Below are positions 17,708 to 33,433 of a stretch of DNA of 64,000 nt, one piece after another. The first letter of the stretch is position 1. The number at the start of each line of letters is the position of its first letter. The DNA comes from Anaerolineaceae bacterium (GTDB lineage Bacteria; Chloroflexota; Anaerolineae; Anaerolineales; Villigracilaceae). The position numbers and the translations under genes were made by a program. Below the pieces are notes generated by a model, which made no database searches, was not told where the DNA came from, and saw only the letters and a list, made by a program, of their open reading frames with translations. The DNA is taken from positions 1 through 64,000 of the forward strand of contig VFJR01000060.1 of assembly GCA_009885945.1 (NCBI GenBank), in the 5' to 3' direction.

Positions 17708-18148
17708 CTATAGTGGTTTTACAAAATGTACCAAACGCTCGGCTTCTACATAGCCAAATTTTAAATGCGCGCCAATACTTAATTCATTATCCAGCCACGT
17801 ATCAGAGCCCATTTCGGTGCACCCTTTTTGGCGCGCCCACTCTTCAGCGGCTTCCATTAGTTTCCCGCTCACGCCGCTGCCGCGAAATGTTTCGTAAACA
17901 AACCATGCTTCAATATAACCAACGGGGCTGGTCTCACAGCCTTCGCCATACTCTCTAATGCGCGACTCGATCATGCCCGCGGGCACACCATCTGCTTCGG
18001 CAATAAAGACAGCATCGCGCTCACTTTGTAAAATATCATCCATATCAAAATCGAGATAATCCAGCGGCGCATCGGGCCAAATTCCATGCCGCATCTTGAA
18101 CCATTCTTTTTTATCTGCACTGGTCACACGTCGAATCAAAACTTGCAT
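17708..18148 (-). CDS. GNAT-family acetyltransferase (aminoglycoside 6'-type-like)
   Basis: This acetyltransferase of about 146 aa has the wording of the aminoglycoside 6'-N-acetyltransferase-like GNAT group: WFKMRHGIWPDAPLDY near the N-terminus, YIEAWFVYETFRGSGVSGKL as the acetyl-CoA motif and MGSDTWLDNELSIGAHLKFGY at the end. The ORF is open back to 18214, but the ATG at 18148 has GGAGATAT directly upstream and starts at the first GNAT strand (MQVLIRRVTSADK). The similarity is to the fold group, and resistance activity should not be assumed. It is convergent with the lipase gene, 4 nt apart. Confidence 0.85.
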   Translation of the reverse strand: MQVLIRRVTSADKKEWFKMRHGIWPDAPLDYLDFDMDDILQSERDAVFIAEADGVPAGMIESRIREYGEGCETSPVGYIEAWFVYETFRGSGVSGKLMEAAEEWARQKGCTEMGSDTWLDNELSIGAHLKFGYVEAERLVHFVKPL

Positions 18149-18219
18149 ATATCTCCAAGACATCATCTGAAAATTAACCCGCTTCAAAATTAGCCCAAGC
18201 CTGATTCTAACCAATCAGC

Positions 18220-18433
18220 TTTTATCTGTAACTACTCAGCCATGTCGTTGCGACGAGCCTCAAACGGCGAGGGCTTTTGCTCTTCCCACCGACATCGTAC
18301 TCGCAGAGTAAGCAATCTCATGTCATTAGGAGACTGCTTCGGCAAAACCAAGCGACGTACTGAGCCTGTCAAAGAGCGCCTCGCAGCGACATGATTATGT
18401 ATGTAGTCTATGGCTGAGCAGTTACTTTTATCT
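18220..18433. mobile_element. MITE with 16-bp terminal inverted repeats and 8-bp target duplication (IS66-like ends)
   Basis: The element proper is 18228-18425 (198 bp). The left end GTAACTACTCAGCCAT and the complement of the right end GTAACTGCTCAGCCAT differ at one of 16 positions. A perfect direct repeat TTTTATCT flanks it on both sides (18220-18227 and 18426-18433). Ends that start GTAA together with 8-bp duplications are known for the IS66 family, so it is probably a non-autonomous derivative. No ORF lies inside. Its centre consists of a copy of the interspersed repeat also seen at 31787 and 33293. Confidence 0.8.
18241..18393. repeat. Interspersed repeat family A, copy 1
   Basis: It begins CATGTCGTTGCGACGAG and ends CTCGCAGCGACATG, an imperfect long inverted repeat. 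The core CGACATCGTACTC...AGAGTAAGCAATCT is shared with copies at 31787-31941 and 33293-33433. This copy sits inside the MITE. Confidence 0.75.
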
Positions 18434-18436
18434 ACC

Positions 18437-19213
18437 CTATATCGAATTTTGAATCAACCACTCCAGCGAATAATCTGCCACTTCTTGCCAACCGCTGGAG
18501 CCGATCAAAAAATGATCGCGCCCGGCAAACAGCTTGAAGTCAGTTTTTGAAGCGGATGTTTTATAGCGCTTATAGTTTGTGCGGTTTAAAGAGGCAGGGA
18601 TAATATGATCTTTATCGCCCGCCGTGATCAACAAAGGCGGATGCGCTTTCTTGAAATCCACTCTGGCAACAGGCGTCAATGATTGCAAAGGCACGCGCCT
18701 TGATTCGGGAATCATATAACGGTCATAAGCGGAACGCTGTTCTGCCAAGGGCATGGCGTTGCCAAAGGCATACTGAAAATGCTCAAAACTCATTTGCACA
18801 GGCTCGTTGAGTTTAAAAGGATTAATCGCAGGCATATTCGCCTTATAAAACGAAAACGATGTAGAGAATACCCCCATCGGCGGGGCAGGGTTAATTGCCA
18901 CACCTGCATACGCCAAATTATGCTGCAACAACAATTGCACAACCAAGCCGCCCATCGAGTGACCGATCAAAACAGGTTTTTCATCTAGGCTTTTAAGCAC
19001 ACGCTGCATATGCTCCACCACATCGCTGAGGGTTAATTTTGCAAGCTGAGCATCTGGATGATTCTTACGCAGTGTCTCGATCGGCTGATTGCGCCCGAGC
19101 CAATCTGGCGTTACACAACGATAGCCTTTTGACTGGTAATAGGGAACCCACTTCTCCCAAGCCAGTGAGTTCATGAACATGCCGTGGATTAAGACGATTG
19201 TTTTTGTTTTCAT
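18437..19213 (-). CDS. Alpha/beta hydrolase
   Basis: This 258-aa serine hydrolase of the alpha/beta fold (Abhydrolase_6-like) starts with the oxyanion segment IVLIHGMFMNSLAWEKW. It has the nucleophile elbow LIGHSMGGLVVQLLL, an acid in ITAGDKDHIIPASLN and a catalytic His in FAGRDHFLIGSSGW. No signal peptide is present. The start ATG at 19213 is preceded on the minus strand by an AAAAAGGATAA ribosome-binding site. It is separated from the gene at 17708-18148 by the MITE. The substrate is unknown; a small ester or lipid is plausible. Confidence 0.88.
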   Translation of the reverse strand: MKTKTIVLIHGMFMNSLAWEKWVPYYQSKGYRCVTPDWLGRNQPIETLRKNHPDAQLAKLTLSDVVEHMQRVLKSLDEKPVLIGHSMGGLVVQLLLQHNLAYAGVAINPAPPMGVFSTSFSFYKANMPAINPFKLNEPVQMSFEHFQYAFGNAMPLAEQRSAYDRYMIPESRRVPLQSLTPVARVDFKKAHPPLLITAGDKDHIIPASLNRTNYKRYKTSASKTDFKLFAGRDHFLIGSSGWQEVADYSLEWLIQNSI

Positions 19214-22226: not shown

Positions 22227-23411
22227 TCACTTTATCACCCCCAACTTTTTCCCCACCTTCGCAAACGCTTCCAATCCCTGACCTAGGTCATCGCGGTCGT
22301 GAGAAGCAGAGATCATCACGCGAATCCTTGCCTTGCCTTTTGCTACAGTAGGGAAGCTGATTGCCATCCCAAAAACGCCCTCCTCAAATAATTCACGGCT
22401 AAATTGCTGTGCAAGCTGAGCCTCACCTAACATAATGGGCGTAATAGGCGTTTCACTCACACCCGTGTCAAAGCCGAGCTTTTTCATCTCGGCTTTAAAA
22501 TATTTTGCATTATCCCAAAGTTTATCCACAAGCTCTGTCGATTCTTCCAGCAAATCTACAGCCGCCAAACATGCCGCCGCATCTGGCGCAGTCACAGCAG
22601 ATGAAAACAGGAAAGGGCGTCCGCGCTGGCGCAACCATTCAATAATAACTTTATCTCCAGCTACGATTCCGCCGACCACACCAAATGCTTTAGACATCGT
22701 ACCCACTTCGATATCCACTTGACCGTGCATGTTGAAGTGATCGACAATGCCGCGCCCGCCTTTGCCTAAAACACCTTCGCCGTGTGCATCATCTACCATA
22801 AATAAAATATCATATTTTTTTGCCACTTCATACAGACCAGGCAACGGCGCAATATCCCCATCCATGCTAAAGACACCATCTGTGATGATCAATCCGCGCC
22901 GAAAATTTGACAGATTCGTTTTAATCGCCTCTTCCAACGACTTGGGATCGTTGTGCTCATAAGGAATGATTTTCGCACCTGAGAGTCTGCTCCCGTCAAT
23001 GATCGAAGCGTGATTCAACTTATCCGAGAAGATCACATCTTCTTTGCCCACCAAGGCAGAGATAGCGCCCAAGTTCGCAGTGAATCCCGATTGAAACGTG
23101 ATCACATCCTCAGCGCCCTTAAATTTTGCCAGCCGCTGTTCCAGTTGAACATGCAAATCGGTTGTGCCCGCAATCGAACGCACTGCCGCAGGACCGACGC
23201 CATATTTTTTGGTAGCTTCTTTTGCCGCTTCTATCAATTTGGGATGATTCGCCAGCCCCAAATAATTATTCGAGCAAAAGTTCAGCACATCCTTGCCATC
23301 CACTTTAATCCGCGCCCCCTGCGCCGAACCAATTGTGCGAATGCGATTATATAAACCTTGTTCTTTTAATCCATCAATTTCTTGTTTAAGCCAATCGAGT
23401 TTTGTGGTCAT
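22227..23411 (-). CDS. kbl: Glycine C-acetyltransferase (2-amino-3-ketobutyrate CoA ligase)
   Basis: This PLP enzyme of about 394 aa belongs to the alpha-oxoamine synthase family. Length and wording fit Kbl, which splits 2-amino-3-oxobutyrate with CoA into glycine and acetyl-CoA in threonine breakdown. Seen are [14 protein letters not shown], the [17 protein letters not shown] loop, the [17 protein letters not shown] Asp-His pair and the PLP-Lys in [13 protein letters not shown]. The ORF is open to 23516, but the ATG at 23411 follows GGAGATACC and matches family N-termini ([15 protein letters not shown]). Threonine dehydrogenase is not adjacent. BioF (8-amino-7-oxononanoate synthase) is the main alternative. 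Confidence 0.88.
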
Positions 23412-33292: not shown

Positions 33293-33433
33293 TATGTCGC
33301 TGCAAGGCGTTTACTTCGACAGGCTCAGTACAACGCTTGTTATTAGCCGACATCGTACTCTTTAGAGTAAGCAGTCTGCTAATAACAGGGGGTTGCTTCG
33401 GGCAAAAACCAAAAACGCCCTCGCAACGACATA
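33293..33433. repeat. Interspersed repeat family A, copy 3
   Basis: This 141-bp element runs from TATGTCGCTGC to CGCAACGACATA, with the shared core CGACATCGTACTCTTTAGAG and a central inverted pair TTATTAGC/GCTAATAA. It lies between rlmB and the GH1 gene. Confidence 0.8.

What the first reader, a model, noticed from the sequence alone, without database searches (positions are those of the whole stretch)
18220..18433. 198-bp MITE with IS66-like ends and a perfect 8-bp target duplication
The terminal repeats GTAACTACTCAGCCAT/GTAACTGCTCAGCCAT differ at one position and are flanked on both sides by TTTTATCT. GTAA ends and 8-bp duplications fit IS66. The perfect duplication suggests a fairly recent insertion. 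Its internal part is another repeat family (A), so it may be a mobile carrier of that repeat or a nested insertion.
Basis: partly seen in the sequence, partly recalled or inferred. Interest (0 to 1): 0.55.

Follow-up and report, generated by a model that had tools for sequence, protein, structure and literature searches.

The report
IS66-type miniature transposon carrying palindromic repeat
A 198-base stretch of a Chloroflexota-type genome looks like a transposase-less mini-transposon whose ends match a known insertion-sequence family and whose middle is another repeated palindrome: a fairly ordinary kind of element, but one of a widespread set in which the ends stay and the middle changes.

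Summary
In detail: 18228-18425 is bounded by 16-bp inverted repeats with one mismatch and flanked by TTTTATCT on both sides. Of 13 paired elements examined in this genome, 6 have an exact 8-bp duplication, against 0 of 156 mis-paired flanks. The ends are those of single-ORF IS66 elements (ISBst12 type): 19 of 55 distinct IS66 loci from relatives have both such ends, a few with 8-bp duplications, and the published ISDge4 has nearly the same ends, an 8-bp repeat and observed transposition. No IS66 transposase was found in this draft genome, so the element is an orphan or its partner is unassembled. The interior is repeat A, which occurs here mostly without IS66 ends, so 'mobile carrier of A' is favoured over nested insertion. 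In relatives the same ends enclose A again (G020, G030) or unrelated interiors, down to 39 bp in total. 'Fairly recent' is not supported: three other copies with perfect duplications are only 69-84% identical to it where they align. New member of a known kind; the wider interest is that A also sits in a second, unrelated end-frame.

The parts
18220..18227 (.). target-site duplication, left copy TTTTATCT
   Evidence: sequence; 6 of 13 own-genome elements have an exact 8-bp duplication, null 0 of 156
18228..18243 (+). left terminal inverted repeat GTAACTACTCAGCCAT, IS66/ISBst12-type end
   Evidence: same or near-same ends on IS66 elements of relatives; ISDge4 ends in PMC12898284 (passages)
18242..18392 (+). 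repeat A: dispersed palindrome, outer arms ATGTCGTTGCGA...TCGCAGCGACAT; its first two bases are shared with the left terminal repeat
   Evidence: second inverted repeat; 134 arms in the genome against 1 control; also found without IS66 ends
18292..18310 (+). optional short module inside A (contains the mini-palindrome TACTCGCAGAGTA), present in some copies and absent at the same place in others
   Evidence: alignment
18357..18374 (+). optional module GTACTGAGCCTGTCAAAG inside A, absent from most of the 13 own elements
   Evidence: alignment; a close form also in L002 and L005
18393..18409 (+). spacer between A and the right end; 6 of 13 own elements share this type
   Evidence: alignment
18410..18425 (-). 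right terminal inverted repeat, reads GTAACTGCTCAGCCAT on the minus strand
18426..18433 (.). target-site duplication, right copy TTTTATCT; three bases separate it from the end of the hydrolase ORF at 18437
   Evidence: ORF table
17708..18214 (-). neighbouring GNAT-type acetyltransferase ORF (true start probably inside); not part of the element
   Evidence: Pfam PF00583
18437..19213 (-). neighbouring alpha/beta hydrolase ORF; not part of the element
   Evidence: Pfam PF12697

Best explanation
The feature is a non-autonomous miniature transposon (MITE). Its two 16-bp ends are recognised by a transposase of the IS66 family, ISBst12 type (one transposase gene, GTAACTRCTCAG-like ends), encoded elsewhere; the transposase inserts the element at a staggered cut and repair leaves the 8-bp duplication TTTTATCT. 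Shown here: ends, duplication, copy family, the same ends on IS66 elements of relatives, and interiors that differ while the ends stay. Inferred: that an IS66 transposase acted in trans in this cell line. The interior is the separately dispersed palindrome A, taken up as cargo by an IS66 end pair rather than being the source of mobility. No partner transposase was found in the assembly, so the element is now probably immobile unless a partner is missing from the draft or re-enters.
For: End pattern 27 times in own genome against 1 control; 13 paired elements, 6 with exact 8-bp duplication, null 0 of 156. Pattern with at most 1 mismatch in 25 of 61 genomes including the own one, 358 places in G056 alone, control at most 1 per strand per genome. 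Of 40 stretches fetched from G056, G041, G058 and G020, 28 show a pair of ends, 17 of these with an exact 8-bp duplication. IS66 loci: 20 of 60 fetched, or 19 of 55 distinct places, have both ends within 2 mismatches 1.1-2.2 kb apart, null 17 of 1200 shuffled loci; seven distinct places have GTAACTRYTCAG exactly at both ends; exact 8-bp duplications in L120, L241, L248, L260, 7 of 8 in L142 and L244. Five transposases from such loci hit Pfam DDE_Tnp_IS66 and the four also scanned with NCBIfam hit IS66 family transposase above cut-off. ISDge4: ends GTGACTACTCAGCA / GTAACTGCTCAGCA, single 449-aa ORF, 8-bp repeat, transposition observed (PMC12898284, passages). Same ends around unrelated interiors; elements of 39-47 bp in total. 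In 40 loci picked as likely A-only, 0 of 65 A arms have an IS66 end within 3 mismatches. L210 in G020 sits with an 8-bp duplication inside what looks like an A repeat; its joined flanks align with uninterrupted A copies of that genome, though only 5 bp past the junction.
Against: No IS66 transposase in the own genome; of the end-rich genomes G058 and G020 had none, G056 one partial match whose locus L125 shows no matching end, G041 two, although G056, G058 and G020 together hold 426 end sites. Seven of 13 own elements have no exact duplication. Among the 28 paired stretches of relatives 11 have no exact 8-bp duplication: one has 9 bp (L176), two have 7 bp (L179, L200), two 7 of 8 (L186, L201), six none. 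36 of 55 distinct IS66 loci did not show both ends, and of the seven with exact ends only L248 (8 of 8) and L244 (7 of 8) have a duplication; one (L235) starts at a contig end. The MITE core shares nothing with 12 of these IS66 elements at E 0.01, so descent from a particular IS by internal deletion is not shown. No orthologous empty site.
Confidence: 0.91

Rival explanations
1. Nested insertion: A is itself a mobile palindrome that jumped into an older IS66-end MITE without A.
For: A occurs apart from IS66 ends in many places and sits directly against the left end, sharing the AT of CCAT/ATGTC; CCAT also ends the terminal repeats of elements without A. The right spacers of the own copies are of several types (6 of 13 share one, L026 and L047 share another), so a single composite ancestor is not certain.
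Against: 12 of 13 own elements have A directly at the left end (L047 lacks that half), and the exact composite junction occurs in 25 stretches of 8 other named assemblies, which fits a composite that moved as a unit. I recognised no target duplication of A itself.
Confidence: 0.25
2. The ends belong to another DDE family with 8-bp duplications, not IS66.
For: The genomes with most ends mostly lack IS66 transposases.
Against: IS66 elements in the same order and the published ISDge4 carry these ends; I saw no transposase by eye beside the unpaired ends that I inspected.
Confidence: 0.06
3. The inverted repeat is not a transposon but a host structural or regulatory palindrome, for example a hairpin upstream of the acetyltransferase gene.
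For: The strand folds better than 199 of 200 shuffles, z -3.2; 4 of 13 sites lie inside an ORF of 150 aa or more against 527 of 650 random positions.
Against: Exact 8-bp duplications and unrelated interiors between constant ends are not expected of a fixed regulatory element. A secondary role is not excluded.
Confidence: 0.03

Closest known systems
ISDge4 (IS66 family, ISBst12 group) of Deinococcus geothermalis, PMC12898284 (passages seen)
   Same: ends GTGACTACTCAGCA / GTAACTGCTCAGCA, 8-bp direct repeat
   Different: autonomous, with a 449-aa transposase; the window element has no ORF of 80 aa or more and carries repeat A
Single-ORF IS66 elements of the same order, e.g. L118 (G059), L248 (G348), L241 (G268)
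   Same: GTAACTRCTCAG or near-identical ends; exact 8-bp duplications in L241 and L248, none recognisable in L118
   Different: 1.5-1.6 kb with a transposase ORF; no match to the MITE core in 12 such elements at E 0.01
MITECca01 of Cardinium, IS982-derived (PMC9769881, passages), and MITEPsy1 of Pseudomonas syringae (PMC3189936, passages)
   Same: short, non-coding, ends resembling those of a parental IS, several copies
   Different: other IS families; their presumed parent IS is present in the same genome, here none was found
GTAG/CGTC-tagged REPs (PMC3733652, passages)
   Same: repeat A is likewise a short dispersed palindrome
   Different: paired A copies in the sample are 87-181 bp, REPs 20-40 bp; membership in those families was not tested

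Membership tests
MITE (non-autonomous miniature transposon) | short element with terminal inverted repeats and no transposase gene | tested here: met
   198 bp, 15 of 16 bp inverted repeats, no ORF of 80 aa or more listed inside
MITE (non-autonomous miniature transposon) | target-site duplication of fixed length | tested here: met
   8 bp exact in 6 of 13 own elements, no other exact length from 6 to 10, null 0 of 156
MITE (non-autonomous miniature transposon) | multiple dispersed copies | tested here: met
   27 end places; 13 paired elements
MITE (non-autonomous miniature transposon) | transposition in trans by a transposase of a full-length element | not testable with these tools
   needs a transposition assay
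IS66 / ISBst12-type end specificity | ends starting GTAA, shared with an IS66-family element | tested here: met
IS66 / ISBst12-type end specificity | 8-bp target duplication | tested here: met
   own elements; IS66 loci L120, L241, L248, L260 exact
IS66 / ISBst12-type end specificity | partner transposase in the same genome | tested here: not met
   no PF03050 match and no L118-like match in the 95.7% complete draft; hence called an IS66-type MITE by its ends only

The most novel reading that the evidence does not exclude
In this lineage transposon ends and palindromic cores are separate, exchangeable parts. The same core (A) stands alone, inside the IS66 end pair, inside a second unrelated end pair (CTSACCTTACGCA, 7-8 bp duplication), and in one hybrid with one end of each kind (L013), while the IS66 ends hold unrelated cores in other genomes. 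Cores would pass between frames by recombination or conversion within the shared palindrome, so that dispersed palindromes spread as hitchhikers on several transposase systems at once.
Probability: 0.35. Interest if true: 0.5.

Novelty: new member of a known kind. Interest (0 to 1): 0.35.

Why it matters
It gives an IS66-type assignment to a MITE family whose ends reach hundreds of sites in at least one genome of this order (358 in G056), and suggests that the ends alone may be enough (elements of 39-47 bp with 8-bp duplications). The alternative frames around one palindrome make it testable how dispersed palindromic repeats without a transposase of their own get around.

Tried and rejected
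Rejected: a transposase beside unpaired ends in the own genome (ORFs read by eye: no transposase recognised) and in G058 (none seen). Rejected: L099 as an autonomous copy; its ORF does not look like a transposase by eye.

Empty site in relatives: the hydrolase has matches in 22 of 120 genomes including the own one; 20 loci with about 1.5 kb flanks were tested for the neighbours, and the acetyltransferase was found beside it only in the own locus, apart from one weak 27% hit in L268. Literature: the strings TCATTGCGAG and GTAACTACTCA gave 33 (25 listed) and 3 papers, unrelated by title; MITE with IS66 (10 papers), miniature inverted with Chloroflexi (6), IS66 family/TnpC/inverted repeats/target site duplication (6) and MITE/modular/palindromic/chimeric (51, 15 listed) showed no paper on IS66-derived MITEs in Chloroflexota, judged by title and start of abstract only; the library lacks most subscription journals. 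I saw passages of PMC9769881, PMC3189936, PMC8024623, PMC12898284 and PMC3733652 and read none in full.

Selection to keep in mind: the 40 A loci were chosen as likely A-only, so their lack of IS66 ends is not an unbiased fraction; L317 among them has a decayed end by eye, and L308 and L310 look like chance matches to the arm rather than A. The 40 elements were selected for a duplication of at least 7 of 8 and identical elements were counted once; of its 11 interior groups two are mostly N and should not count. One search scored 40 of 82 candidates, so its 45 matches are a lower bound. The shuffles keep base composition only.

Full report
What is there. The window is G000:C81:1-64000 of a 3.43-Mb draft in 209 contigs, 95.7% complete. 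At 18228-18425 lies a 198-bp element with 16-bp inverted repeats differing at one position, flanked on both sides by TTTTATCT. It sits between an alpha/beta hydrolase ORF (ending at 18437) and a GNAT acetyltransferase ORF, both on the minus strand.

It is a family. The end pattern with at most 2 mismatches occurs 27 times in the genome, the reversed control once. Pairing ends gave 15 pairs, of which I kept 13: six have an exact 8-bp duplication, none an exact one of 6, 7, 9 or 10, and 0 of 156 mis-paired flanks match at 8. The other seven match at 3, 5, 5, 6, 6, 7 and 7 of 8. The left 8-mers are 18% G+C against 45% for the window, and 4 of 13 sites lie inside an ORF of at least 150 aa against 527 of 650 random positions: AT-rich, mostly intergenic targets in this genome.

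Which transposase. Ends of this kind are widespread in the order: 25 of 61 genomes including the own one have the pattern with at most 1 mismatch; 358 places in G056, 43 in G058, 25 in G020, 22 in G041, with at most 1 control place per strand per genome. Of 40 short stretches fetched from these four genomes, 28 show a pair of ends; 17 of the 28 have an exact 8-bp duplication, L176 has 9 bp, L179 and L200 have 7 bp, L186 and L201 match 7 of 8, and six have none. Further G058 elements of 209-357 bp, most with 8-bp duplications, contain no transposase.

IS66 transposases (PF03050) were found in 15 of 61 genomes, not in the own one, and an L118-like transposase in 41 of 400 genomes of the order, not in the own one. 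The 60 loci fetched by these two searches are 55 distinct places. Both ends within 2 mismatches, 1.1-2.2 kb apart, occur in 20 of 60 loci (19 of 55 distinct), against 17 of 1200 shuffled loci. Seven distinct places (L118, L233, L235, L244, L246, L248, L251) have GTAACTRYTCAG exactly at both ends; of these L248 has 8 of 8 and L244 7 of 8 duplicated, the others none recognisable, and L235 starts at a contig end. L120, L241 and L260, with slightly different ends, have exact 8-bp duplications, L142 7 of 8. Five transposases (L118, L120, L132, L138, L142) hit Pfam IS66 domains; the four of them scanned with NCBIfam hit 'IS66 family transposase' above cut-off. Outside this order, ISDge4 of Deinococcus geothermalis, an ISBst12-group element, is reported with ends GTGACTACTCAGCA and GTAACTGCTCAGCA, one ORF, the 8-bp repeat CCTCGATG and observed transposition (PMC12898284, passages). 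So the IS66 assignment of the ends is firm; the action of such a transposase in this cell line is inferred. Against it: G058 and G020 have no IS66 match, G056 one partial match whose locus shows no matching end, G041 two; loss of the partner after amplification, incomplete drafts, or another source are all possible. The MITE core matches none of 12 IS66 elements at E 0.01, so it is not shown to be a deletion derivative.

The interior. Repeat A (outer arms ATGTCNTTGCGA) has 134 arms in the genome against 1 control. In 40 loci that I picked as likely A-only, 0 of 65 arms have an IS66 end within 3 mismatches; L317 has a decayed one by eye, and L308 and L310 look like chance arms. In 12 of 13 own elements A adjoins the left end directly (CTCAGCC-ATGTC in the window copy); right spacers are of several types, one shared by 6 of 13, another by L026 and L047. 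An exact composite-junction pattern occurs in 25 stretches of eight named assemblies, labelled Anaerolineaceae, Anaerolineales, Anaerolineae, Chloroflexi (two), Brevefilum, Anaerolinea and Herpetosiphon (records of the window's own genome may be left out there). This fits a composite that moved as a unit; a nested insertion of A into a MITE is not excluded.

Ends stay, interiors change. Among 40 elements with a duplication of at least 7 of 8 in 11 genomes, 37 interiors of 30 bp or more fall into 11 groups without similarity at E 1e-3; two of these groups are mostly N and should not be counted. The A-bearing elements of G000, G020 and G030 fall together in the largest group (12). Three further elements are 39, 41 and 47 bp in total; L093 is 41 bp too, with 6 of 8 matching. 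In G020 one element (L210) sits with duplication GAGATTGC inside what looks like an A repeat; with the flanks joined the A sequence continues, but only 5 bp past the junction are comparable.

Age. L005, L019 and L021, with perfect duplications too, are 84, 69 and 81% identical to the window copy where they align, so a perfect duplication is poor evidence of youth. No close relative with an empty site was found: the relatives searched held no genome listed as of the same genus, and the two flanking genes are not neighbours in the loci tested.

A second frame. A is also found between CTSACCTTACGCA ends: the pattern CTGACCTTACGCA with at most 2 mismatches occurs 151 times against 52 control places. 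In the 30 loci fetched there are 17 pairs, six with an exact 7-bp and two with an exact 8-bp duplication; mis-paired flanks match in 4 and 2 of 272, so targets resemble each other. Three of the 17 hold the exact A arm and two more look like A by eye. In the A sample 11 of 65 arms have such an end outside, against 10 of 1300 shuffled flanks; L013 is a hybrid with this end on one side and the IS66 end on the other. An assembly error cannot be excluded for L013. This is the basis of the novel case.

Verdict. The finding is real and correctly read in its main point. It is a MITE of IS66/ISBst12 type, new as a family as far as the listed searches go, but of a known kind.

Noticed in passing
L323, L325, L326, L328, L332, L336, L337, L341 (own genome): Second MITE-like family with ends CTSACCTTACGCA and exact 7-8 bp AT-rich duplications, different interiors; no transposase seen by eye in the ten loci inspected.
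   Followed up: partly
L013 (G000:C13, about 22956-23116): Hybrid: repeat A with the second-frame end on one side and the IS66-type end on the other, no duplication.
   Followed up: partly
own-genome copies of A, e.g. window 18292-18310 and 18357-18374, L008, L026, L047, L301: Short modules (TACTCGCAGAGTA, TACTGAGCCTGTCGAAGTA, ACATTTGCCCTGTGGGAAACC and close forms) are present or absent inside A at recurring places; L206 of G020 has TACCCGAAGGGTA at the place of the first one, with both stem sides changed.
   Followed up: no
L175, L184, L186, L093: Elements of 39-47 bp that consist of little more than the two ends; L175 and L184 have an exact 8-bp duplication, L186 7 of 8, L093 6 of 8.
   Followed up: partly
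G058, e.g. L215, L216, L217, L221: Several contigs end within about 20-80 bp of the start of such an end, so these repeats seem to break the assembly.
   Followed up: no
window 33294-33432 (L320): Another copy of repeat A in the window, without IS66 ends, with inserted modules.
   Followed up: partly
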